Shown here: positions 1 through 59,545 of the stretch, piece by piece
How positions within the stretch are numbered: the first letter of the stretch is position 1
Layout: each line of letters starts with the position of its first letter
Source of the DNA: Fibrobacter sp.
GTDB taxonomy: Bacteria > Fibrobacterota > Fibrobacteria > Fibrobacterales > Fibrobacteraceae
Direction: 5' to 3'
DNA: 62,516 bases
NCBI GenBank assembly: GCA_017503015.1
Contig: JAFVTX010000025.1
Location: forward strand, 1-62,516
The notes under the pieces: model-generated
The model's database searches: none
Seen by the model: only the letters and a program-made list of their open reading frames with translations
Told to the model about the DNA's origin: nothing
Translations under genes and position numbers: made by a program

Positions 1-37
1 ACAACTCACAACCCACAACTCACAACTCACAACTATT
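1..37. repeat. Degenerate heptamer tandem repeat (ACAACTC x5)
   Basis: Five consecutive 7-nt units of the form ACAACTC (one ACAACCC, last ACAACTA) run up to the first gene. Similar 7-nt degenerate tandems, each with a different unit, occur at 787-857, 13761-13788, 31316-31351 and 51917-51976. Confidence 0.75.
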
Positions 38-54
38 TTACTACTATTACACCC

Positions 55-783
55 ATGCTTTACGGTATTTGTTCTGATATTCATTCCAATGCTACGGCTT
101 TTCGTGCCGTGCTGGAATCCATGAAAGAAAACAAGGTGGAGCGCAGAATCTGCCTGGGCGACCTTGTGGGTTACGGCGTCGACGCCAACGAATGTGTACA
201 GCTCGCCAAGGAAAACATGGATGTGTGCCTGATAGGAAACCACGACAGCGTGGCTATCAAGTACGAGTCCAGCATGGGATTTAACCCTTACGCCAAGCAG
301 GCCGTGGAATGGATGCAAGAGAACATGAATGCCGAATCGGTGGCCTACATCCGTTCGTTGCCCTACATTCACGAAGAAAACGACATTACCTTTGTGCATG
401 CGTCGCCCATGTCCCCTGCGGATTGGCTCTACATTACCGACTTGGAAGACGCCCTGAACGCTTTTGACCATTTTTCTGGAACTTATTGCTTTATCGGCCA
501 TACCCACAGCCCTGTGATTGTGGCGAGCCGCCCCATGGCCATTCCCAAGGTGCTGGACGAATACGAATACACCATCGAGAATACGGAACGGCTTTTGGTG
601 AATGTGGGCAGCGTAGGCCAGCCTCGTGACCGGGACTGCCGCGCCAGCTGGTGCCTGTTGGATACGGAGACCAAGTGCATCCGCATTATCCGCGTGGAAT
701 ACGATGTCTTTATCACCCAGGAGCGTATGCGCAAGGCGGGAATGCCCAATTTCCTCATCGACCGCCTGAGCGTAGGAAGATAA
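55..783 (+). CDS. Calcineurin-like metallophosphoesterase (YfcE/MJ0936 type)
   Basis: This is a 242-residue cytosolic phosphoesterase predicted to hydrolyse phosphodiester or phosphomonoester bonds with two bound metal ions. The metal-ligand motifs of the family are visible in order: DIHSN at residues 8-12, GD at 35-36, GNHD at 61-64, a His in the VHASP segment near 115, and GHTH at 148-151. There is no signal peptide. The length fits the small single-domain proteins annotated as YfcE-like or diadenosine-tetraphosphatase-like enzymes. The substrate cannot be read from sequence. No clear ribosome-binding site precedes the ATG, which lies just after a heptamer repeat. It is followed on the same strand by rlmH, separated by another repeat, so an operon is possible but not shown. 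Confidence 0.85.
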   Translation: MLYGICSDIHSNATAFRAVLESMKENKVERRICLGDLVGYGVDANECVQLAKENMDVCLIGNHDSVAIKYESSMGFNPYAKQAVEWMQENMNAESVAYIRSLPYIHEENDITFVHASPMSPADWLYITDLEDALNAFDHFSGTYCFIGHTHSPVIVASRPMAIPKVLDEYEYTIENTERLLVNVGSVGQPRDRDCRASWCLLDTETKCIRIIRVEYDVFITQERMRKAGMPNFLIDRLSVGR

Positions 784-786
784 CGA

Positions 787-857
787 TGTGGAATGTGTAG
801 TGACTAATGTGTAATGAGCTGTCGAATTTTACATTTCACATCTCACACTACACACCT
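787..857. repeat. Opposed heptamer repeats between the phosphoesterase and rlmH
   Basis: Units of 7 nt such as GTGTAGT/GTGTAAT (796-816) are followed by ACATTTC/ACATCTC/ACACTAC (831-851). The two blocks are roughly inverse complements, so the spacer could fold into an imperfect hairpin. There is no coding potential. Confidence 0.55.
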
Positions 858-863
858 TTGATT

Positions 864-1325
864 ATGAAATGGGTTCTCGCAGTTTTTGGTAAGGCCGGCT
901 CGCCGTTTATCGCCGACGAGGTGGACAAGTACGTGAAGCGGCTCCGTGGGGGAGTGTACCCGCTGGAGGTGGTGGAACTGAAGGAATCCAAGCTCGATGA
1001 CCGCGCCCAGTCCCTGGCGCAGGAAGCGACACTTTTTGACAAGAAATTCCCGAAATCGGAATACCGCCGCGTTATCCTTTCAGAAGAGGGCAAACTCATG
1101 GATACGGTGAAGCTCTCCGACACCTTGCGTGACCGTTTTTCGGGCAATATCGTATTCTTGATTGGTTCCGCTTATGGTATTGACGAGAACCTGAAAAAGT
1201 CCGCCGATTTGCTGCTTTCCCTTTCGCCCCTGACCTTTACCCACGACCATGCACGGGTGATTATGGCGGAACAGCTCTACCGCGTGCAGATGGTAATGCA
1301 GAACCATCCGTATCATCATAGGTGA
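864..1325 (+). CDS. rlmH: 23S rRNA (pseudouridine1915-N3)-methyltransferase RlmH
   Basis: A SPOUT-class methyltransferase that uses S-adenosylmethionine to methylate pseudouridine 1915 in helix 69 of 23S rRNA on assembled 70S ribosomes. The start at 864 gives MKWVLAVFGK and a 153-residue protein, matching the usual ~155. The longer upstream reading is repeat sequence and was not used. The knotted SAM-binding core shows as FLIGSAYGID, and the family's conserved C-terminal segment is present (HDHARVIMAEQLYR, ending NHPYHH). It stands alone between repeat-filled spacers; the next gene, prfC, is also a translation factor. Confidence 0.93.
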   Translation: MKWVLAVFGKAGSPFIADEVDKYVKRLRGGVYPLEVVELKESKLDDRAQSLAQEATLFDKKFPKSEYRRVILSEEGKLMDTVKLSDTLRDRFSGNIVFLIGSAYGIDENLKKSADLLLSLSPLTFTHDHARVIMAEQLYRVQMVMQNHPYHHR

Positions 1326-1350
1326 TGATTGTCTTGGGGGGGGCTCAATC

Positions 1351-1433
1351 GTCATGGCGGGCAACCCAATCGTCATGGCGGGCTTGACCCGCCATCTAGA
1401 ATGCTAGATAGCGGCTCGTGGGCCGCTATGACG
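1351..1433. repeat. Dispersed GTCATGGCGG-type palindromic repeat
   Basis: Two starts of GTCATGGCGGGC are followed by GACCCGCCATCTAGA and a GCGGCTCGTGGGCCGC stem ending in ATGACG. The same family occurs at 20709-20802 and, in frame, inside hrpA at 30544-30620. A run of eight G (1336-1343) lies just before it. Confidence 0.75.
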
Positions 1434-1480
1434 TGGTAACAGTATGTTGCTTTCTTCGTCATTTTGTTATATTTGGCGCC

Positions 1481-3046
1481 ATGAATCCGGAAATTGAAAA
1501 ACGCCGCACTTTCGCTATTGTCAGCCACCCCGACGCGGGTAAGACCACCATCACCGAAAAGTTCCTGTGGTACGGAAACGTAATCCGCGAGGCGGGCCAT
1601 GTGCGCGCCAAGGCAAACCGCAGCTACACCGTCAGTGACTGGATGAAGATCGAACAGCAGCGCGGTATCTCGGTTTCCAGTTCCGTTCTGAATTTCCCCT
1701 TCGAAGGTTGCATGTTCAACCTGGTGGATACCCCGGGGCACCAGGACTTCTGCGAAGACACCTACCGCGCATTGACCGCCGTGGATGCCGCCCTGGTGCT
1801 TATCGACAGCGTGAACGGTGTGGAAAAGCAGACCATCAAGCTCATGGACGTGTGCCGCATGCGTCACACCCCGATTATCACCTTCATCAACAAGATGGAC
1901 CTGGATGGCCGCCATGTGCTGGACCTGCTGGACCAAATTGAAAGTGTTTTGCACATCAAGACCGCCCCCTTTACGCTCCCCATCGGAGTAGGAAAGCTGT
2001 TCAAGGGCGTGTATTCCATCGCCGAGAATACCTTTCACACTTTCAACAAGGAAGAAGGCCATCAGGAAATCATCCAGATGGAAGGTCCCGACGACCCGCG
2101 CCTGGTGGAAATGTGCGGCGAAAACTGGGTGAACCAGTTCAAGGAAGAATACGAGATGGTCACCGGCGGCATGGACCCCTTCGACCACGAGAAGTTCCTG
2201 AAGGGGGAGATGTGCCCCGTGTTCTTCGGCTCTGCGGTGAACAACTTCGGTGTCCGTCAACTTTTGAACGCTTTCGCCAAACTGGCCCCGCCCCCCATGG
2301 TGCGCGAGACCGACAAGCGCCCGGTGAGCCCCGACGAAGATGCTTTCAGCGCCTTCGTCTTCAAGATTCAGGCCAACATGGACCCCAAGCACCGCGACCG
2401 TACCGCATTCCTGCGCATCTGCTCCGGCAGTTTTACCCGCGGGGAGAAAGTTTTCCATGTGCGCACGGGCCGCGAAATCCGCCTGGCCGCTCCGACCGCC
2501 TTCCTCGCCAAGGACAAGGAAGTCATCGACCACGCCTGGGCGGGCGATATCGTGGGCATCAATGACCCGGGGCTTTTCCGCATCGGCGATACGCTGACCG
2601 ACGGCGAGAAAATGAGTTTCACGGGCATTCCGGATTTTGCTCCGGAACACTTTGCCCGAGTGACGCTTTTGAATCCGCTTAAGAGCAAGCAGATGGCCAA
2701 GGGCCTTGCCGAACTCAGTGAAGAAGGTGCAACCCAGCTCTACGAACCGCTCAAGTCCGCAATTCCTGTGATTGGCGTGGTGGGGGAGTTGCAGTTCGAC
2801 GTGCTCAAGTTCCGCCTGCAGAGCGAATACGGCGCCGACGTGTCCCTGGACCGCGTGCCCGCCCACGGAATCCGCTGGGTGTCTGGCCCCGAAGCCGACA
2901 TGGCCAAGTTCGCCGAGGAATACGCCATGGACTGCATGATGGACAAGGAACGTAACCTGGTTTGTCTGTTCCCCAACGAGTACCGCCTGAACCTCGCGAT
3001 GAAGAACTACGAGAACCTCAAGTTCGCCGAAACCTCCCAAGGGTAG
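1481..3046 (+). CDS. prfC: Peptide chain release factor 3
   Basis: RF3 is a translational GTPase that recycles RF1/RF2 from the ribosome after termination. The start at 1481 gives MNPEIEKRRTFAIVSHPDAG and 521 residues, close to the E. coli length; the upstream in-frame extension is repeat DNA. The GTPase motifs are clear: G1 HPDAGKTT near residue 16, switch II DTPGHQDF near 86, and G4 NKMD near 140. After the G domain come the beta-barrel domain II and the domain III typical of RF3 (GVVGELQFDVLKFRL, about residues 425-440). The C-terminus ends shortly after FPNEYRLNLAMK. The protein is intact. A repeat follows directly, before the PFK gene. Confidence 0.95.
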   Translation: MNPEIEKRRTFAIVSHPDAGKTTITEKFLWYGNVIREAGHVRAKANRSYTVSDWMKIEQQRGISVSSSVLNFPFEGCMFNLVDTPGHQDFCEDTYRALTAVDAALVLIDSVNGVEKQTIKLMDVCRMRHTPIITFINKMDLDGRHVLDLLDQIESVLHIKTAPFTLPIGVGKLFKGVYSIAENTFHTFNKEEGHQEIIQMEGPDDPRLVEMCGENWVNQFKEEYEMVTGGMDPFDHEKFLKGEMCPVFFGSAVNNFGVRQLLNAFAKLAPPPMVRETDKRPVSPDEDAFSAFVFKIQANMDPKHRDRTAFLRICSGSFTRGEKVFHVRTGREIRLAAPTAFLAKDKEVIDHAWAGDIVGINDPGLFRIGDTLTDGEKMSFTGIPDFAPEHFARVTLLNPLKSKQMAKGLAELSEEGATQLYEPLKSAIPVIGVVGELQFDVLKFRLQSEYGADVSLDRVPAHGIRWVSGPEADMAKFAEEYAMDCMMDKERNLVCLFPNEYRLNLAMKNYENLKFAETSQG

Positions 3047-3054
3047 GCGGTATT

Positions 3055-3105
3055 GTCATCCCCGCGCCCCTCTTTGTCATCCCCGCGCAGGCGGGGATCT
3101 CCTTA
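3055..3105. repeat. GTCATCCCCGC / GCGGGGATCTCC repeat
   Basis: One partial and one full copy of the repeat GTCATCCCCGCG...CGGGGATCTCC lie directly after prfC. Other copies are at 4879-4930, 8277-8456 and, inverted within hrpA, at 28702-28728. Confidence 0.8.
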
Positions 3106-3202
3106 CGATTCTTTTTTGCTTTTGCTATATTTACACCCGTAAATTTTTTAACCCGAAACCGCGCGGTTTACTGACTGCGCGAAAATTCAAAAGGAAGAAA
3201 CA

Positions 3203-4867
3203 ATGGCTGACAATCTGTCCGTCCTCGGCCAGGCCCGCAAGGCCTACAAGCCGAAACTCCCCGTAGCGCTCCGCAATGGCGCTCTCAAAGTTGCTCTCGT
3301 GAAGGGCAAGCCCACCCAGTCCGTCCGTGACCAGGCCAAGATCAAGGCCCTGTTCCCCAACACCTACGGCGCTCCCTACATCGGCATGAAGAAGGCTACC
3401 AAGGCTGCTGCCGGTAAGGCTCTCAACGTGGGCGTGGTGCTCTCCGGTGGTCAGGCTCCTGGTGGACACAACGTGATCGCGGGTATCTTCGACGGTATCA
3501 AGAGCATCAGCAAGAATTCCAAGCTCCTCGGCTTCCTCGGCGGCCCCTCCGGCCTCGAAAACGGCAAGTTCATCGTGATCAACGAAAAGATCATGGACTC
3601 CTACCGCAACACTGGTGGATTCGACATCATCCAGTCCGGCCGTACCAAGCTCGAAACTGAAGAACAGTTCAAGAAGTGCATGGCCGTTGCCAAGGCCCAG
3701 AAGCTCGACGCTATCGTGATCATCGGTGGTGACGACTCCAACACGAACGCTGCTGTTCTCGGTGAATACTTCCAGGCCCACGGCGCAAGCTGCGTGGTTT
3801 GCGGCTGCCCCAAAACCATCGACGGCGACCTCAAGAACGAATACATCGAAACCTCCTTCGGTTTCGACACCGCCGTCAAGACCTACTCCGAACTCATCGG
3901 CAACATCATGCGCGATGCCAACTCCGCTCAGAAGTACTGGCACTTCATCAAGCTCATGGGCCGCAGCGCTTCTCACATTGCTCTCGAAGCCGCTCTCCAG
4001 ACCCACCCGAACATCTGCCTGATTTCTGAAGAAGTCAAGGCCAAGAAGATGAAGCTGAAGCAGGTCATCAAGTACGTGGCCGACATCGTCGCTGCCCGTG
4101 CCGCTGCCGGCAAGAACTTCGGTGTGGCCCTCATTCCGGAAGGCCTCCTGGAATTCATCCCCGATGTAGGCGTGCTCATTTCCGAACTCTCCGAAGCCCT
4201 CGCTCATCACGAAAAGGAAGTGGAAGGTCTCGACACTGCCGCCAAGGTGGAAAAGGTCTGCAAGTGGATTTCCAAGGCTTCCGCCGAAGTCCTCAAGAGC
4301 CTCCCCGCCACCACTCAGGGCCAGCTGATGCTCGACCGCGACAGCCACGGCAACGTGCAGGTTTCCCTCATCGAAACCGAAAAGCTCATCATCGAGATGG
4401 TCAAGAAGGAACTCAAGAGCCGGAAGTCCTTCAAGGGCAAGTTCAGCGCTCTCAACCACTTCTTCGGTTACGAAGGCCGCTGCGCCGCTCCGTCCAACTT
4501 CGACGCTGACTACTGCTACAGCCTCGGCTTCACCGCCTCTGTGCTCGCCTTCAACAAGATGAACGGCTACATGAGCTCTGTGCGTGACCTCACGAAGGGC
4601 ATCGAAAAGTGGACTGCCGGTGGCATTCCTATCACCATGATGATGAACATCGAACGTCGTCACGGTGCCGACAAGCCGGTGATCCAGAAGGCTCTCGTGG
4701 AACTCGACGGCGCTCCGTTCAAGTTCTTCGCCAAGAACCGCGACGTTTGGGCCAAGACTGAATCCTACACCTATCCGGGTCCGATCCAGTACTGGGGTCC
4801 CAGCGAAGTTTGCGACATCACGAACTTCACGATCAAGCTGGAACGCGGCGCCCTCAAGGTGAAGTAA
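3203..4867 (+). CDS. pfp: Pyrophosphate-dependent 6-phosphofructokinase
   Basis: This enzyme interconverts fructose 6-phosphate and fructose 1,6-bisphosphate with pyrophosphate in place of ATP, a reversible glycolytic and gluconeogenic step. The 554-residue length and architecture match the long (beta-type) PPi-PFKs. Visible motifs are LSGGQAPGGHN near residue 80, GGDDSNTNA near 175 (the Asp in GGDD is the feature that blocks ATP use in this family), the catalytic PKTIDGDL near 200, and MGRSASHIALE near 252 for substrate binding. A good ribosome-binding site (AGGAAG) lies 8 nt before the ATG. A terminator at 4938-4969 closes the unit, so it is probably monocistronic. With PEPCK (36.4 kb) it fits a succinate-producing fermenter. 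Confidence 0.95.
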   Translation: MADNLSVLGQARKAYKPKLPVALRNGALKVALVKGKPTQSVRDQAKIKALFPNTYGAPYIGMKKATKAAAGKALNVGVVLSGGQAPGGHNVIAGIFDGIKSISKNSKLLGFLGGPSGLENGKFIVINEKIMDSYRNTGGFDIIQSGRTKLETEEQFKKCMAVAKAQKLDAIVIIGGDDSNTNAAVLGEYFQAHGASCVVCGCPKTIDGDLKNEYIETSFGFDTAVKTYSELIGNIMRDANSAQKYWHFIKLMGRSASHIALEAALQTHPNICLISEEVKAKKMKLKQVIKYVADIVAARAAAGKNFGVALIPEGLLEFIPDVGVLISELSEALAHHEKEVEGLDTAAKVEKVCKWISKASAEVLKSLPATTQGQLMLDRDSHGNVQVSLIETEKLIIEMVKKELKSRKSFKGKFSALNHFFGYEGRCAAPSNFDADYCYSLGFTASVLAFNKMNGYMSSVRDLTKGIEKWTAGGIPITMMMNIERRHGADKPVIQKALVELDGAPFKFFAKNRDVWAKTESYTYPGPIQYWGPSEVCDITNFTIKLERGALKVK

Positions 4868-4878
4868 TTATCCGCATT

Positions 4879-4930
4879 GTCATCCCCGGCTTGACAAGAA
4901 TGTCATCCTCGCGAAGGCGGGGATCTCCTT
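4879..4930. repeat. GTCATCC / GCGGGGATCTCC repeat
   Basis: Another copy of the dispersed repeat, again placed directly after a stop codon, between pfp and its terminator. Confidence 0.75.
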
Positions 4931-4937
4931 TTCCCAA

Positions 4938-4969
4938 AGAGGACTGCTTAACGGCAGTTCTCTTTTTTA
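4938..4969 (+). terminator. Rho-independent terminator of pfp
   Basis: Stem AGAGgACTGC / GCAGTtCTCT with a 6-nt loop, followed by TTTTTT. Confidence 0.8.
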
Positions 4970-5131
4970 TAGTGGGGGAGGAATCCCCCTGGCTTCAGCC
5001 CCGCCCACGCCGGGTCTTCCGCACACCCCCTCTGCGGGGCTCAAACGCCGCCCCGCAACGCCCTGCTTTGTTTTTAGCAACGCCCTGCTTTGTTTTTAAA
5101 ATGTTATCTTGTAATAAAACGGAGGACCCCT

Positions 5132-5302
5132 ATGGCCTGTGCAAATTGCAAAATCCGTGCCCAGTACGACAAGAATCCCAAGTCCCTCATCGGGCGGTTC
5201 TGGCGGTTCCACATCAACTTCTGCCCCGGCTGGCGCTCGTACCTGAAAAGTCTCTCCGAAGAGGAACGTATCGCCATCAAGGAAAAGTACGACATTAAGT
5301 AG
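5132..5302 (+). CDS. Small conserved cysteine-containing protein (56 aa)
   Basis: A 56-residue basic protein starting MACANCKIRAQYDKNPKSL, with a strong ribosome-binding site (GGAGGA) 7 nt before the ATG. It has a CxxC pair at residues 3-6 and one more Cys near 31 (NFCPGW), followed by the charged segment SLSEEERIAIKEKYDIK. I recall similar short proteins in Fibrobacter and Treponema genomes, with no known function; this was not checked. The aromatic core (RFWRFHINFCPGWRSYLK) suggests a small folded domain, perhaps RNA- or membrane-associated, but that is inference. A longer open frame in another phase overlaps it and was rejected because it crosses repeat sequence and lacks a ribosome-binding site. 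Confidence 0.8.
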   Translation: MACANCKIRAQYDKNPKSLIGRFWRFHINFCPGWRSYLKSLSEEERIAIKEKYDIK

Positions 5303-5379
5303 CCTGCATTTTTCAGACCGGCGTCCGCCTGCATGTTTCGGCCTGCCAGGCGTCACACAGTTCACACCCTCATAAAAAA

Positions 5380-5405
5380 GCCCCGCAAGTTGCGGGGCCG
5401 TTTTC
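5380..5405. terminator. Bidirectional terminator between the 56-aa gene and aquaporin
   Basis: Stem GCCCCGCAA / TTGCGGGGC with A-rich sequence on the left and TTTT on the right. It can terminate the small gene (+) and the aquaporin (-). Confidence 0.8.
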
Positions 5406-5448
5406 GTATAGTCATTACGACTTGCGTAAACGTTGTTTTTGCAAGGGC

Positions 5449-6171
5449 TTATTTCTTAGCTTCGGCGAGGAACTTGTAGCACACGCCGCCAATTACGCCA
5501 CCGAGAATCGGGGCCACCCAGAAGAGCCAGAGCTGCTTGATGGCGGCGCCGCCCACGAACACGGCCATGGCGGTAGAGCGGGCCGGATTCACGGAGGTGT
5601 TGGTTACCGGGATGGAGATGAGGTGGATGAGCGTGAGGCAGAGGCCGATGGCAATGGGGGCAAAGCCAGCGGGAGCGCGGCCGTCGGTGGCGCCCATGAT
5701 TACGAACAGGAAGATGGCCGTGAGCACGGTTTCAATGAGGAATGCAGAAAGCATGCCGGAGGTCTTGCCGCCGAAGGCGTTCAGGCCGTTGGTGAGGGAA
5801 TCGGACCAGCCGTTGGTAGCAAATGCGCCGATGCCTGCGTTGGCAAGGTCGGGGCAGGCGATTACGTAGAGGAGCGCTGCGGCAATGATACCGCCAATGA
5901 CCTGTGCCACGATGTAGGCCGGAGCTTCCTTAGCGGGGAAGCGGCCGCCGGCAACCTGACCGAGTGTGACGGCCGGGTTCAGGTGGCAACCCGAAATGTG
6001 GCCGATGGCGTATGCCATGGTGAGCACCGTAAGGCCAAACGCGAGGGACACGCCCACGTAGCCGATACCGGTGGTCGGGACGCCGCAAGCGAGCACGGCC
6101 GCACCGCAGCCGCCAAACACAAGCCAGAAGGTGCCGATAGCTTCGGCAATAGCACGAGTACTAAGTTTCAT
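5449..6171 (-). CDS. aqpZ: Aquaporin Z-type water channel
   Basis: An inner-membrane water channel of the MIP family with six membrane spans. Both pore-forming NPA boxes are intact: HLNPAVT in the first half (about residues 63-69) and SVNPARS in the second (about 187-193). The narrow-filter His and the small residues typical of water-selective channels are consistent with AqpZ rather than a glycerol facilitator, although selectivity was not modelled. I chose the Met at 6171 ([15 protein letters not shown]), giving 240 residues, because GGAG lies 6 nt upstream; the Met four codons earlier lacks a site. It is transcribed alone, opposite to the small gene before it and downstream of aspS, from which it is separated by a strong terminator. 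Confidence 0.93.
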
Positions 6172-6216
6172 AAACATCTCCATAGGTTAGGGTTGAATTC
6201 GCGCTGCAATTTAGCA

Positions 6217-6242
6217 AAAAATAGTCCGGTTGAACCGGACTA
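6217..6242 (-). terminator. Rho-independent terminator of aspS
   Basis: Perfect 10-bp inverted repeat TAGTCCGGTT-G-AACCGGACTA. Read on the minus strand, the run TTTTTT follows, as expected for termination of aspS. Confidence 0.85.
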
Positions 6243-54472: not shown

Positions 54473-54742
54473 GGCAAGCTCAGGGTCCTTCCCTTAATCA
54501 GTTCCTACTTCTTCACGTGCCTGTGGTACTCCTGTAAACTACAAACTTCGAATCTTCCGAAGTCGTGCTTGTCCCCTGTGAGCGAAGGCAAAGAAGCCTT
54601 GGCTGAGTTGCCGTGCGAGAGGCTGGCCTTTGGGGTCTTGTAACATCCTGAATTAAAGGCCAGCCGGTCTTCCAGGCCTTCCACGGTAGAGGTGAGGGCG
54701 GCGATGGTCGTGGTGATAGGAATGCCCGAGACGACCGCCTTG
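54473..54742. repeat. Direct repeat: copy of the carB 3' end
   Basis: It aligns with 59373-59545: the last ~45 codons of carB plus the stop and ~30 bases beyond, same orientation. There are point differences and one 99-nt insert (54575-54673). The similarity ends at 54742, where PIN-toxin sequence begins. Confidence 0.85.
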
Positions 54743-54795
54743 CCTCCAAAGACAAATGCGGATATCAGGACATTTGTCTCAAGCAGGATTTTCAT
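54505..54795 (-). pseudogene. PIN-toxin start fused to the carB 3' end
   Basis: A 96-residue chimera. Residues 1-19 (MKILLETNVLISAFVFGGK) are the N-terminus of a PIN-domain toxin, with the first catalytic Asp already Glu (usual LLDTN). Then the sequence changes to [21 protein letters not shown], the C-terminal domain of CarB, and ends in CarB's last residues ([15 protein letters not shown]). A 33-residue insert (EDRLAFNSGCYKTPK...) interrupts the CarB part and contains a 10-bp inverted repeat. The PIN domain has lost its remaining acidic residues, so it cannot be a nuclease. It overlaps the antitoxin stop by one base (TGATG), showing the original toxin-antitoxin layout. Whether the chimera is translated into a stable protein is unknown. 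Confidence 0.8.
54575..54673. repeat. Insert with 10-bp inverted repeat within the carB copy
   Basis: About 99 nt absent from genuine carB. It has GGCTGGCCTT (54621-54630) and AAGGCCAGCC (54656-54665) as perfect inverted arms with a 25-nt loop. It keeps the frame. Confidence 0.7.
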
Positions 54796-55019
54796 CAAGC
54801 GGTTCGGGTCCGTCTGAAGTTGGCCATGTCAGCAAGCATCTCCTGCTCGTTCTTCCAGCCCTTGTCGTCGGCGAAAATTCCCTGAATCTGTTTCATGGTC
54901 GCTTTTGCCGCTTTTTTGCGGGATGCCGAGAGAAACCGGACATAACCCAAGGCCGAACGCAAATCTTCCTCGGTAAGCGTTTCGATGATTTCAGAAAATT
55001 CGGCAGCCATTGCAGTCAT
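54795..55019 (-). CDS. Antitoxin-like protein of a broken PIN toxin module
   Basis: 74 residues (MTAMAAEFSEIIETLTEEDL...), a short helical protein with no DNA-binding motif that I can name. Its stop overlaps the PIN fragment by one base in the order antitoxin-toxin, the usual arrangement. AAGAGG lies 6 nt before the ATG. Such helical proteins with the E-D-L-x-x-A-L-x-Y-V-R-F-L pattern precede PIN toxins in several genomes, from memory. With the toxin lost, it would be a solitary antitoxin. Confidence 0.65.
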   Translation of the reverse strand: MTAMAAEFSEIIETLTEEDLRSALGYVRFLSASRKKAAKATMKQIQGIFADDKGWKNEQEMLADMANFRRTRTA

Positions 55020-55518
55020 AGCAAACCTCTTTTCTTAATAAAAAAAATCAAGCTGTAAATGCAACACGGAAAAATATATCCCGTTATCTTGGGCAATCAT
55101 AGCGAACATCTCCGTAATGCGTTCGCTCAGCGTTGGTATCGGTTTAATGTAGGTTGCCATACATTGTTTTTTTCCTGCATAAATATTCGTTTTTTGGGGT
55201 GCTTCTGCTCAAAAGTGGTTGGTAACACTCAAAATTCTAAAAAAAATTTAAGAACAGGTACATTGTTTGCAAATTTTATGTATATTTCTTTCGTATGAAT
55301 TTGATGGGTATAAGAAAAATGGGCGAAATAGGCTTAAAAATGGCTCGTTTTATTCTGTTCCCCCCCCCGTGTAAAATTTAGTTTACAAAATGATTTTGTC
55401 AGAGACGATTTCCGAGTTGGAAACCGCCCTTTTGGCGTTTGTATTCCGTCAAGGGTATTGCGAACGCTGAAATGAGCGGTAATAACTCTTTTTAGTTCAA
55501 ATTAACAGTAGGTATTTT
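55020..55518. other. AT-rich promoter region of the SPFH operon
   Basis: About 500 bases with no credible gene (a 79-residue open frame at 55059-55298 was rejected). It holds a run of nine C (55360-55368) immediately followed by a palindrome TGTAAA-ATTTAG-TTTACA (55370-55387), about 130 bp before the SPFH gene. Confidence 0.55.
55370..55387. promoter_or_regulatory. Palindrome upstream of the SPFH operon
   Basis: TGTAAA-N6-TTTACA, a perfect inverted repeat next to the C9 tract. Its half-sites are those of the nitrogen palindrome, but in the opposite order. A possible operator. Confidence 0.4.
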
Positions 55519-56973
55519 ATGGGTCTTTTTGGATTTGGCAGTAATGCTCCTAAGGTAAATGAAGGCGGCTTTATGGACGCCATCCGGTGCGACGAACCGT
55601 CGTATCTTATTTGGAAGTGGCGTCCTGCGGGGCAGGAAGCGAATACCACAAAAAAAGAGAATGCCATTCGGTATGGTTCCACCGTTCGCGTCAAAGATGG
55701 TGAAGTCGCTGTATTTGTATATAATCAAAAAGACGGAACGCAGCAGGATTTTATCGAAGGTCCGTTTGACAAGAAAATTGAAACGGCGAACTTCCCTGTA
55801 CTTGCAAGTATTGTTGGCTTGGCGTTTGGCGGGGCTTCTCCTTTCCAGGCCGAAGTCTACTATATCAATCTTGCTGGCATCATCCAGATTAAGTTCGCGA
55901 TTCCGTATTTTGATGTGTTTGATCCGCGTCAACCCGATTTAGGCGTTCCCGTTGCGGTCCGCGGAACGATGAGCTTTAAGATTGCGGACTATCGTGAATT
56001 TATCAAGCTGCATCGCCTTGTGAATTTTGATTTGGACGCGTTCCAAAAGCAAATTAAGGATGCTTGCGTTAAGTATGTCAAGGATACCGTTATCAATATC
56101 GTTGATAATATCCCGCTCGTTCAAATAGAAAAGAAAATAATAGCAGTGAGCGATGCCATTGAAGAACGTCTCAAGAAGCGTTTGCAGAGTGAATTCGGTG
56201 TTGTTGTTTCTTCTGTAGATATTGCTACGATTGAGGTGGACAAGACGAGTGATGCTTATGTGACCCTTAAGAGTGTTACGCAGGATATTCAGACTCAATT
56301 TACCAAAACACAGGCGAATGTGAATTTGGATACGATGAAGGCGCAGAGCGCTGTGAATATCCAGAATATGCAGGATATGCAGCGTATCAATGCCGAAAAT
56401 ATGGAGGAATCGCTCCGTATTCAGCGAGAAGAAGCCCAGCGTGCGCAGAAATTGCAGACTGAAGGTGCAAATTTTATGGCTCATCAGCTAAATCAGCAGA
56501 CCAAGGTTGCTTTGGCTGGCACAGACGCCTTGGGACAACTCGGGGCAAATGGCGGAATGAATATGGGCGGAAACGGCGCTTTCAATCCTGGTGCAATGAT
56601 GGCTAGCATGGCTGTTGGTGGTGCCGTTGGTCAGAATATGGCGGGAATGATGAATAATATGATGGGTGGAATGCAGGGTGTTCCCGGTATGACTCCCAAT
56701 ATGGCTCCTCCGCCCCCGCCCATGCCTCCGCAGATTCAGTTCAATGTGGTTGTCAATGGCCAGTCTGCAGGACCTTTTGATATGAATGCGTTGCAGCAGA
56801 TGATTGCTGCGGGGACTTTGACCAAGGATACTCTGGTGTGGAAAGTGGGGATGCCTGCTTGGGCTGCGGCCTCAACTGTGCCGGAGCTCGCGTCTTTATT
56901 CACACCAGCTGTTCCCCCGGTACCTCCGGTTCCGGGAAATCCCGGCGTGCCGCCTGTTCCGCCTTCATTGTAG
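55519..56973 (+). CDS. SPFH-domain protein with C-terminal GYF_2 domain (YdjI-like)
   Basis: A 484-residue protein starting MGLFGFGSNAPKVNEGGFMD. Residues ~15-290 form an SPFH/virion-core-protein-like domain (YGSTVRVKDGEVAVFVYNQKD, FIEGPFDKKIETANFPVLAS, AVRGTMSFKIADYREFIKLH). Similar proteins (YdjI in Bacillus) bind membranes and scaffold other proteins. A Gln/Met/Gly-rich linker follows (about 295-400). The C-terminal GYF_2 domain (about 405-460: VVVNGQSAGPFDMNALQQMI, LVWKVGMPAWAAA) is predicted to bind proline-rich ligands, and the protein ends in its own PPVPPVPGNPGVPPVP tail, a possible self-ligand. It is the first gene of a five-gene operon, all 2-20 nt apart. The role is unknown; membrane stress is a guess by analogy. 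Confidence 0.85.
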   Translation: MGLFGFGSNAPKVNEGGFMDAIRCDEPSYLIWKWRPAGQEANTTKKENAIRYGSTVRVKDGEVAVFVYNQKDGTQQDFIEGPFDKKIETANFPVLASIVGLAFGGASPFQAEVYYINLAGIIQIKFAIPYFDVFDPRQPDLGVPVAVRGTMSFKIADYREFIKLHRLVNFDLDAFQKQIKDACVKYVKDTVINIVDNIPLVQIEKKIIAVSDAIEERLKKRLQSEFGVVVSSVDIATIEVDKTSDAYVTLKSVTQDIQTQFTKTQANVNLDTMKAQSAVNIQNMQDMQRINAENMEESLRIQREEAQRAQKLQTEGANFMAHQLNQQTKVALAGTDALGQLGANGGMNMGGNGAFNPGAMMASMAVGGAVGQNMAGMMNNMMGGMQGVPGMTPNMAPPPPPMPPQIQFNVVVNGQSAGPFDMNALQQMIAAGTLTKDTLVWKVGMPAWAAASTVPELASLFTPAVPPVPPVPGNPGVPPVPPSL

Positions 56974-56982
56974 GAGAGAAGT

Positions 56983-57351
56983 ATGAGTGACAACAGTTTC
57001 TTTTCGATGGATCGTCTTGTAGAGTTTGGTCTTGGTATGGCCGTAGCTCAGCAGATGACGAATGCCATGAATCAGACGCTTTGCCAAATGCAGACTCCGA
57101 CTGCGTCGATGCCTCAAAATGTGGTGTTGAATTCGGTAAATAACGGTGTCTACTATGTTGTCTTGGATGGAAAACAGGCGGGGCCGTTTTCTCAGAGTGA
57201 ACTTTCGAGGCTCATAAATGAGAAAAAAGTTACAAAGGATACTTTTGTGTGGAAGCCGGGGATGCGAGAATGGCTGACGGCAGAGAATATTCCAGATGTT
57301 CTTAAGTTGGTTGCATTAATGCCTCCAGAAATTCCGCAAATGCTAAAGTAG
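56983..57351 (+). CDS. Small GYF_2-domain protein
   Basis: A 122-residue protein. Residues 1-45 are Met/Gln-rich (MAVAQQMTNAMNQTL), like the linker of the SPFH protein. The rest is a GYF_2 domain (YYVVLDGKQAGPFSQSEL, FVWKPGMREW, about 52-105) closely resembling the C-terminus of its neighbour, so a partial duplication of that gene is likely. GGAGAG precedes the ATG. It lies 9 nt after the SPFH gene. Confidence 0.8.
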   Translation: MSDNSFFSMDRLVEFGLGMAVAQQMTNAMNQTLCQMQTPTASMPQNVVLNSVNNGVYYVVLDGKQAGPFSQSELSRLINEKKVTKDTFVWKPGMREWLTAENIPDVLKLVALMPPEIPQMLK

Positions 57352-57360
57352 GAGCAAACA

Positions 57361-57708
57361 ATGAAACCGAATTGGTTTATGATTTTACTTTCTTTGGGAA
57401 TGTCCGCTCTTGCTGGATATGGTCTGTATTCCATGAATGTCGATAACGATAATGTATGGTTGATTACCATAATGGGTGGAATAACGATTTATTCTGCCCT
57501 TGTGGGTGTTTTGGGCTTTCGTTTTGAAAGGGAAGGGCATTCTGTTAATATTCGGCTAATGTCGTCGCTCTTTTTGATTGCGTTTATAGCCGATAATCTT
57601 GTCTTCTCTATTGTTGGACTCTATGTAGCTCCATACATCGTCTTGACAGGCCTGTTGTTATTCGTGTACGCAGGCGCTGTTTACAAGATGATAAACACAA
57701 AGGTTTAA
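57361..57708 (+). CDS. Small integral membrane protein
   Basis: A 115-residue protein with about four hydrophobic segments (residues 5-25, 33-50, 65-85, 88-108), starting MKPNWFMILLSLGMSALAGY. No family recognised. It lies 9 nt after the GYF gene with GGAGC upstream, so it is translated with it; it may be the membrane anchor of the SPFH complex. Confidence 0.75.
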   Translation: MKPNWFMILLSLGMSALAGYGLYSMNVDNDNVWLITIMGGITIYSALVGVLGFRFEREGHSVNIRLMSSLFLIAFIADNLVFSIVGLYVAPYIVLTGLLLFVYAGAVYKMINTKV

Positions 57709-57726
57709 CTTAAAAAAGGAATCTAT

Positions 57727-58674
57727 ATGCCGTTTTGTCAAAATTGCGGAAATAAGTTGGAAGAAGGTGTCGCATTCTGTTCCATATGTGGAACGGCAAC
57801 CGAATGGGCTGGCACAGCAAATAAACCTGAAGAATACGCCAAGCGTGAACAGGTGTTTGTTGGAAAGGTGAGAAAATGTCCTAATTGCGGAACAGTTTTG
57901 AATACTGATGCAGTCAGATGTCCAGATTGTGGAATGGAATTAGGAATTTCACAAATTGGAAGTGCTATTTCGGATTTCAAAAATAAAATAAGAGAATTTG
58001 ATATTAAGCGAAAAAGCGATTTGCGGAATCGGTTCCTTAATGGAAGTAGCTTGAGTCTTGCGGCATACAATATGGAATTTAAAAAGCGAACTTTTTCTTC
58101 TGAAGAAGAGAAGAATAAGTTTATTGATGATTATATAGCGAATAATAAAGTTTTTTTGACGTCTGGAGATACCGATGGTGATGGGGGACTTATAAATTAT
58201 AAACCTACAGCATCGGAGCAGGAATTTGCTCAGTATTTGAAGACTGTTGCGGTTCCTCATAATAAGGGTGAAATTCTAGAATTCCTATCGTTGGCAAAAT
58301 CATCTCTTGCGGGGAAGTCTGTCAATAGTTATTGGTATAAACACTGGTCTGCTTTGCTGTATAGATGTGTTGATGAGGGAAAATTGTTTTATGGCGATGA
58401 ACAAGGTTTTTGTGAAAGATTAGATTCTTTTGTCAAAGATGTTGTGCCTCCACAAAAAACAATGCTAGAAAATATGCAAAACCTTAATGCGAGAATTTAT
58501 AGTCCTATTTGGTGGAAGAAAGTGTTTTCTTCTGGGAAATCGAGTGGGGGTGAATCAGCAGGAGGTTCTGGCGGCCTAAAAAAGATTATGAAATGGAGTG
58601 GTATTGGGTGTGGCGGCCTTTTCGTTTTAATGATTGTGATTTCTGCCATAGCAGCTGCTTTAGGTGTTAAATAA
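57727..58674 (+). CDS. Double zinc-ribbon protein with C-terminal membrane anchor (YdjG-like)
   Basis: A 315-residue protein. It has two zinc ribbons at the N-terminus: CQNCGNKLEEGVAFCSICG (residues 4-22) and CPNCGTVLNTDAVRCPDCG (about 54-72). The middle region is helical and has no recognised domain (FKNKIREFDIKRKSDLRNRF). The C-terminus has a Gly/Ser hinge (GKSSGGESAGGSGG) and a single span (GLFVLMIVISAIAAALG), a tail anchor. Zinc-ribbon membrane proteins are partners of SPFH/PspA proteins in Bacillus (YdjG), which suggests the same role here, by context only. Confidence 0.8.
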   Translation: MPFCQNCGNKLEEGVAFCSICGTATEWAGTANKPEEYAKREQVFVGKVRKCPNCGTVLNTDAVRCPDCGMELGISQIGSAISDFKNKIREFDIKRKSDLRNRFLNGSSLSLAAYNMEFKKRTFSSEEEKNKFIDDYIANNKVFLTSGDTDGDGGLINYKPTASEQEFAQYLKTVAVPHNKGEILEFLSLAKSSLAGKSVNSYWYKHWSALLYRCVDEGKLFYGDEQGFCERLDSFVKDVVPPQKTMLENMQNLNARIYSPIWWKKVFSSGKSSGGESAGGSGGLKKIMKWSGIGCGGLFVLMIVISAIAAALGVK

Positions 58675-58676
58675 AG

Positions 58677-59297
58677 ATGTCTAGTTCGTGTGAAAAAATA
58701 GAACTGGATTTACATAGACAATTTGCAGAAAATCAAAACAGCCACCAGAATGTATTTATGCAGCTGGTGGTTGCTTTTATTGGCATATTTGCTGGACTAG
58801 GCTATGTGTACACTCATTTGGAAACAAGTGTCGTAAAAATTACTGAAGATGCTTTACTGTTTAAACCTTTTGTTATGCATGTTTCCATAATGATAGCGGG
58901 TTTCTTATTTTGCTTGATGGCTTTAGTTGTTATACATTTCGGTTGGTCTTTCCGTCGTGATATGCTGTTGAATCGTAAAATACGTGAATTGGCTTACGGA
59001 ACGGATTGTTATAATCGATTTGAAATATTTTTTAAGGATTATGGAAAAAATGTTGATGATATGCCTGGGTTTTATGAAATATTTTTCAAGGCGATTTTAG
59101 CAATGCAAGTGACATTACTTTTGTTCGCCATCTCATTTGATAGTGGCTGTTGTGTTTGTGCGACTACTCAAACTTGCTGTTCCTTAATTAACTTTTGCTT
59201 GATAATTTTGGAATTTATTATACAGGCTTCTTATTACTATAGGAAACAGGATAAAGTTAAATATCAATTTGTAAGAATGTTTCCCGAAAACGAGTAG
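58677..59297 (+). CDS. Integral membrane protein, last gene of the SPFH operon
   Basis: A 206-residue protein with about four membrane spans (about residues 25-42, 62-87, 137-155, 165-187), a cytoplasmic-looking loop between them (RRDMLLNRKIRELAYGTDCY) and a Cys cluster before the last span (CCVCATTQTCCS). No family recognised. It starts 2 nt after the zinc-ribbon gene's stop without its own ribosome-binding site, indicating coupling. Confidence 0.7.
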   Translation: MSSSCEKIELDLHRQFAENQNSHQNVFMQLVVAFIGIFAGLGYVYTHLETSVVKITEDALLFKPFVMHVSIMIAGFLFCLMALVVIHFGWSFRRDMLLNRKIRELAYGTDCYNRFEIFFKDYGKNVDDMPGFYEIFFKAILAMQVTLLLFAISFDSGCCVCATTQTCCSLINFCLIILEFIIQASYYYRKQDKVKYQFVRMFPENE

Positions 59298-59315
59298 TAA
59301 TTGAATGGGTGAAAA

Positions 59316-59346
59316 ACAGGTGCCCCACTCGGGACACCTGTTTTGT
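59316..59346. terminator. Bidirectional terminator between the SPFH operon and carB
   Basis: ACAGGTGcCCC-ACTC-GGGaCACCTGT with TTTT on the right and AAAA on the left. Confidence 0.85.
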
Positions 59347-59372
59347 AGTTAAAGGAAATTCTGGCTCCCTTC

Positions 59373-59545
59373 GGCAAGCTCAGGGACCTTCCCAAATCAC
59401 ATCTTATTTCTTCACGTGCCTGTGGTACTCTTGGAGGCTGCAGACTTCGAATCTTCCGAAGTCGTGCTTGTCCATGAGGCCTTCCACGGTGGAGGTGAGG
59501 GCGGCGATGGTCGTGGTGATAGGAATGCCCGAGACGACTGCCTTG
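59373..59545. repeat. Direct repeat: genuine carB 3' end
   Basis: The inner copy of the carB 3'-end repeat, matching 54473-54742 apart from its 99-nt insert. Together the two bound the SPFH operon. Confidence 0.85.

What the first reader, a model, noticed from the sequence alone, without database searches (positions are those of the whole stretch)
55519..59297. Five-gene SPFH / GYF_2 / zinc-ribbon membrane operon without PspA
Genes 2-20 nt apart encode an SPFH protein with GYF_2 domain and Pro-rich tail, a second GYF_2 protein, two multi-span membrane proteins and a tail-anchored double zinc-ribbon protein. This resembles the Bacillus PspA-YdjG-YdjH-YdjI membrane-stress set but lacks PspA and adds GYF_2 domains whose likely Pro-rich ligand is the tail of the SPFH protein. 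A self-assembling membrane scaffold, used for stress or defence, is a reasonable hypothesis. Its mobile-looking flanks favour an accessory role.
Basis: partly seen in the sequence, partly recalled or inferred. Interest (0 to 1): 0.72.

Follow-up and report, generated by a model that had tools for sequence, protein, structure and literature searches.

The report
Mobile SPFH–GYF membrane scaffold operon
This is a horizontally moving bacterial gene set that probably builds a protein cage on the inside of the cell membrane, held together by proline-binding domains; it recurs across several phyla, mostly in bacteria that lack the usual membrane-repair protein PspA, and its function is untested.

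Summary
In detail: five co-directional genes at 55519-59297, 2-18 nt apart. They encode a Band_7_1 (SPFH) protein with a GYF_2 domain and Pro-rich tail, a small GYF_2 protein, a multi-span protein, a tail-anchored double zinc-ribbon protein and a four-span protein. Among 66 related loci in Bacteroidota, Firmicutes and Spirochaetes, a zinc-ribbon gene flanks SPFH-GYF in 48/50 testable loci, the small GYF gene follows in 49/57 and TM3 in 36/57. Gene 5 is confined to Fibrobacter relatives. The Pro-rich segments on both sides of the GYF domain are conserved (55/57 carry both). The host genome has no PspA, nor do 22 of 26 other carriers. The fold matches HflK/C, flotillin, prohibitin and stomatin cages. 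The island lies between direct repeats of the carB 3' end, is shared at 93-95% DNA identity by two other Fibrobacter lineages, and is rare (5/198 Bacteroidales). Best reading: a PspA-independent, YdjI-like membrane scaffold cross-linked by GYF-polyproline contacts. GYF binding and function are inferred. Defence is possible (five of eight Firmicutes loci adjoin candidate defence genes; Bacteroidota loci show almost none). New variant of a known kind.

The parts
55519..56973 (+). SPFH (Band_7_1, YdjI-like) protein, 484 aa: SPFH domain ~45-242, ~93-aa helix 245-337, Met-rich block 361-381, PPP linker, GYF_2 ~408-457, Pro-rich tail; no TM segment
56983..57351 (+). small GYF_2 protein (122 aa), paralogue of the SPFH protein's C-terminal ~120 aa
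57361..57708 (+). 115-aa multi-span membrane protein (TM3), conserved module member, no Pfam family
57727..58674 (+). double zinc-ribbon protein with helical IPNTKED-type region and C-terminal TM anchor (315 aa)
58677..59297 (+). four-span membrane protein (206 aa), found only in Fibrobacter relatives in the phylum search; add-on gene
59312..59345 (+). probable intrinsic terminator hairpin between the operon and carB
   Evidence: -20.3 kcal/mol, z -3.5
54473..54742 (-). displaced copy of the carB 3' end with a ~99-nt insert; left boundary repeat of the island
59373..59545 (-). carB 3' end and flank matching the left repeat; right boundary of the island
54795..55019 (-). small ORF resembling an antitoxin beside a truncated PIN-toxin-like start, left part of the island (read by eye, no HMM run)
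   Evidence: inference from sequence

Best explanation
The operon encodes a PspA-independent, YdjI-like membrane scaffold carried on a horizontally moving island. Shown: the SPFH protein has the fold of cage- or ring-forming SPFH proteins, lacks its own TM anchor, and ends in a conserved Met-rich block followed by a GYF_2 domain set between two Pro-rich segments; its partners (zinc-ribbon TM protein, small GYF protein, multi-span TM protein) are conserved neighbours. Inferred: SPFH subunits assemble into a ring or dome on the inner leaflet, recruited by the zinc-ribbon/TM and multi-span proteins as YdjG/H recruit YdjI. GYF domains bind Pro-rich segments of neighbouring subunits and of the small GYF protein, a detached copy of the SPFH C-terminus, which cross-links or caps the assembly. 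It probably stabilises the membrane under envelope stress, possibly including phage attack, in cells without PspA.
For: Domains; AlphaFold model (pLDDT 71) matching HflK/C, flotillin, prohibitin, stomatin and vault proteins, best E 2.5e-8, and the GltJ and Smy2 GYF domains, the latter solved with a Pro-rich peptide. Neighbour conservation 48/50, 49/57, 36/57. Pro-rich motif on both sides of GYF in 55/57, tail 42% Pro against 3% in the body. Met-rich block 90% conserved, the highest of all regions. Small GYF homologous to SPFH residues 350-469, E 2e-12. No PspA in the host and in 22/26 carriers. dN/dS about 0.04-0.1 for genes 1-4 against UBA4375. B. subtilis YdjI lacks a TM segment and depends on YdjG/H (PMC8581546).
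Against: No binding, assembly or phenotype data. The GYF-ligand pairing is inferred from sequence; the tail is disordered in the model. The Pro tails lack an obvious match to the PPG-type motif known for eukaryotic GYF domains (own knowledge). Eight of 43 small GYF proteins have no PP at the end. TM3 is missing in about a third of loci and all four genes are present in 28/50. The F. intestinalis copy has a stop at codon 52 of the SPFH gene, so the system is dispensable there.
Confidence: 0.55

Rival explanations
1. It is an anti-phage defence module: the scaffold senses phage-induced membrane damage and the TM proteins act as effectors or seal the membrane.
For: Five of eight Firmicutes loci adjoin PADLOC-type genes: Gabija GajA/GajB, CRISPR-Cas I-C, type IV restriction enzyme, AbiD, methyltransferase/DpdB-like. 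A relative of gene 5 lies beside Wadjet JetBCD. The carB hotspot carries Schlafen/AlbA_2 and restriction-type cargo. Sporadic distribution, 5/198 Bacteroidales.
Against: The Bacteroidota loci show almost no strong defence neighbours (14 families in 131 genes against 88 in 71, though fewer genes per side were sampled). No PADLOC model matches the five proteins. Not found in IMG/VR and not close in plasmids. Firmicutes sample is small.
Confidence: 0.22
2. It is a housekeeping-like membrane organiser (flotillin-type fluidity, or secretion and protein-quality control) that happens to be mobile, not a stress system.
For: Closest folds include HflK/C-FtsH and flotillins; a YdjI deletion changes membrane fluidity (PMC8581546); Bacteroidota loci are in ordinary chromosomal settings.
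Against: Rare and patchy distribution; present in only a few Fibrobacterota; broken in F. intestinalis.
Confidence: 0.18
3. It is a true PspA-YdjGHI system whose PspA is supplied elsewhere in the genome.
For: Same SPFH class and a zinc-ribbon TM partner; 3 of 26 carriers do have PspA above cut-off.
Against: No PspA in the host genome at 99.94% completeness or in 22/26 carriers; no TPM-domain YdjH; GYF_2 replaces the zinc ribbon of YdjI.
Confidence: 0.03

Closest known systems
Bacillus subtilis pspA-ydjGHI operon
   Same: YdjI-class SPFH protein without TM anchor, zinc-ribbon TM protein and further TM protein in one operon (PMC8581546, PMC11237479)
   Different: no PspA, no TPM-domain YdjH; SPFH ends in GYF_2 plus Pro tail, not a zinc ribbon; extra GYF protein; zinc-ribbon protein's middle region predicted helical rather than NTF2-like
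Flotillin/NfeD, QmcA-YbbJ and HflK/C cages
   Same: SPFH fold plus long helix; partner membrane proteins
   Different: from general knowledge, those are membrane-anchored by their own N-terminal part and have no GYF domain with a Pro tail
GltJ of Myxococcus (GYF domain 7z3c)
   Same: bacterial GYF_2 domain, closest solved structure by sequence
   Different: only the GYF domain matches; bits far below the GltJ family cut-off
SPFH-SHOCT-like operons in other Fibrobacter and Bacteroides (L028, L029, L172)
   Same: YdjI-class SPFH with zinc-ribbon and TM neighbours
   Different: C-terminal SHOCT-like piece (read by eye) in place of GYF; other partners such as YidD and TPR-type zinc-ribbon proteins

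Membership tests
PspA-YdjGHI system | pspA in the operon or genome | tested here: not met
   no PF04012 match in the host; absent in 22/26 carriers
PspA-YdjGHI system | YdjI-class SPFH domain without TM anchor | tested here: met
   Band_7_1 76 bits; no TM segment
PspA-YdjGHI system | C-terminal zinc ribbon on the SPFH protein | tested here: not met
   GYF_2 in its place
PspA-YdjGHI system | YdjG: two zinc ribbons, YpeB/NTF2-like domain, TM | tested here: inconclusive
   two ribbons and TM present; middle region all helical in the model, no PDB match
PspA-YdjGHI system | TPM-domain YdjH | tested here: not met
   no TPM match in any of the five proteins
SPFH ring/cage scaffolds | SPFH fold with long C-terminal helix | tested here: met
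SPFH ring/cage scaffolds | oligomeric ring or dome | not testable with these tools
   only single-chain models available
GYF domains | GYF_2 profile and fold | tested here: met
   (7z3c, 3fma)
GYF domains | binding of a Pro-rich ligand | not testable with these tools
   conserved Pro-rich segments in 55/57 homologues are circumstantial
Known anti-phage defence systems (PADLOC) | match to a defence protein model | tested here: not met
   no match for any of the five proteins except DruC at E 0.21

The most novel reading that the evidence does not exclude
A so far undescribed, horizontally spreading cross-phylum module in which an SPFH cage is cross-linked at its apex by GYF-polyproline contacts and capped by a detached GYF adaptor, acting as a PspA-free membrane-protection or anti-phage system.
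Probability: 0.25. Interest if true: 0.75.

Novelty: new variant of a known kind. Interest (0 to 1): 0.52.

Why it matters
Most carriers tested lack PspA, the best-known bacterial membrane-repair protein, so a conserved PspA-free SPFH module is a candidate for how they handle membrane damage. It would also give a bacterial case of GYF-polyproline recognition used to assemble a membrane scaffold, with ligand and reader encoded in the same protein. I found no description of this gene set in the papers searched, within an open-access library only.

Tried and rejected
Plasmid, phage and IMG/VR searches for mobile carriers: only one human-faecal record (MT835670.1, 58% identity, unannotated) and distant SPFH proteins. 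Fold search of the zinc-ribbon protein: no PDB match. Promoter and terminator consensus scans: no more sites than shuffles, though a strong hairpin follows the operon. Literature for GltJ GYF binding: no paper with both terms in the held library. GltJ family membership rejected (27 bits against a 450-bit cut-off). One PADLOC batch was over the size limit and was redone smaller.

Full report
What is there. The five ORFs reported at 55519-59297 exist as described, with gaps of 9, 9, 18 and 2 nt. Pfam gives Band_7_1 plus GYF_2 for ORF1, GYF_2 for ORF2, double zinc ribbon for ORF4, and nothing for ORF3 and ORF5. Hydropathy gives no TM segment in ORF1 and ORF2, several in ORF3, one C-terminal in ORF4 and four in ORF5. 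A strong hairpin (-20.3 kcal/mol, z -3.5) lies between ORF5 and carB. No PADLOC model matches any of the five better than E 0.21.

Who else has it. The nearby genomes of one genus and near-identical matches named Fibrobacter place the window in a Fibrobacter-like genome. A scan of GTDB genomes with the SPFH protein returned 66 loci: 98-99% identity in Fibrobacter intestinalis ATCC 43854 and Fibrobacter UBA4375, and mostly about 45-65% in Bacteroidota, Firmicutes and Spirochaetes. These are closer than the SPFH proteins of other Fibrobacter (about 25%), which points to horizontal origin. In 168 Fibrobacterota genomes the zinc-ribbon protein's tail region was found in only three, the window's own included. 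In 198 Bacteroidales genomes, anchor included, five carry SPFH-GYF.

Conserved neighbours. Clustering neighbours and searching with family HMMs showed zinc-ribbon genes, usually directly upstream, in 50/55 loci with enough upstream sequence and on either side in 48/50; the small GYF gene downstream in 49/57; TM3 in 36/57; all four in 28/50. The HMMs were built from these same loci, so the counts describe this set rather than testing it independently. In most Bacteroidota the zinc-ribbon protein begins with a weakly TerB/DUF533-like helical piece (E about 0.001-0.01, below cut-off), where the window's version has a second zinc ribbon; a region around 'IPNTKEDILEFL' is shared. Gene 5 has relatives only within the Fibrobacter family in the phylum search.

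Sequence hallmarks. In 57 SPFH-GYF proteins, 56 have a Pro-rich motif before the GYF domain, 56 after it and 55 both; the tail averages 42% Pro against 3% in the body. A Met-rich block at 361-381 is the most conserved part (90%). The small GYF protein is homologous to SPFH residues 350-469 (E 2e-12) and usually has PP near its end (35/43).

Structure. The SPFH model (mean pLDDT 71) has the SPFH domain, a 93-residue helix and the GYF fold, with a disordered Pro tail. Its best matches are HflK/C, flotillin, prohibitin, stomatin and vault proteins, then GYF domains, including Smy2 solved with a Pro-rich peptide. The zinc-ribbon model is helical without a PDB match.

PspA. The host genome has no PspA. 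Of 26 other carriers, 22 have none, three are above the cut-off and one is weak; two of the 26 are the near-identical Fibrobacter genomes. In B. subtilis YdjI lacks a TM anchor, has a C-terminal zinc finger and depends on YdjG/H (PMC8581546). YdjG has two zinc ribbons and a TM segment and YdjH a TPM domain (PMC11237479). The present module therefore probably works like that system but is not a member of it.

Island and selection. The carB 3' end is repeated at 54473-54742. The stretch 54735-59473 is shared with genome G084 at 93% DNA identity, and 55091-59190 with F. intestinalis at 95%; in G084 it lies beside a carB 3' copy, and in F. intestinalis the island's right end lies beside carB on a separate contig. 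PEPCK and carB are 89-90% identical to F. intestinalis. Other Fibrobacter carry different cargo after carB. Genes 1-4 show dN well below dS, while gene 5 has too few changes against UBA4375 to tell; dS varies between genes (0.02-0.50 against UBA4375), a sign of recombination. The F. intestinalis SPFH gene carries a stop at codon 52 and an altered start.

Function. Five of eight Firmicutes loci adjoin PADLOC-type genes (Gabija, CRISPR I-C, type IV restriction enzyme, AbiD, methyltransferase/DpdB-like), and a gene-5 relative adjoins Wadjet. Bacteroidota loci show little of this, although four genes per side were sampled in the first group and two in the second, so the contrast is not a controlled test. 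I favour a membrane scaffold for envelope stress, with anti-phage defence as the main rival. I do not claim either as shown.

Noticed in passing
54473-54742 and 59373-59545; G019, G025, G009, G036, G062, G064, G078, G084: The carB 3' end is partly duplicated, at varying lengths, in several genomes of the genus, with changing cargo between copies: a recurrent recombination or integration hotspot without an integrase seen here.
   Followed up: partly
54575-54673: A ~99-nt insert interrupts the displaced carB 3' copy, and the same insert is in the displaced copy of G084 (L140 12318-12587).
   Followed up: partly
54505-54798 (-): A PIN-toxin-like start of about 19 aa runs in frame into the displaced carB 3' end; the adjacent antitoxin-like ORF looks intact.
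   Followed up: no
L161 (G036:C7) 2-6225: A relative of gene 5 (34% identity) lies directly beside Wadjet JetB/JetC/JetD genes.
   Followed up: partly
L028, L029, L026, L030, L172: A parallel class of SPFH operons with a SHOCT-like C-terminus, zinc-ribbon/TPR-type and membrane proteins, sometimes with YidD.
   Followed up: partly
L124 9107-12373: In a Prevotella locus the module also neighbours a carB-like gene, at its 5' side; probably coincidence.
   Followed up: no
L074 6998-8449: F. intestinalis ATCC 43854 SPFH-GYF gene has a premature stop at codon 52 and a changed start region.
   Followed up: yes
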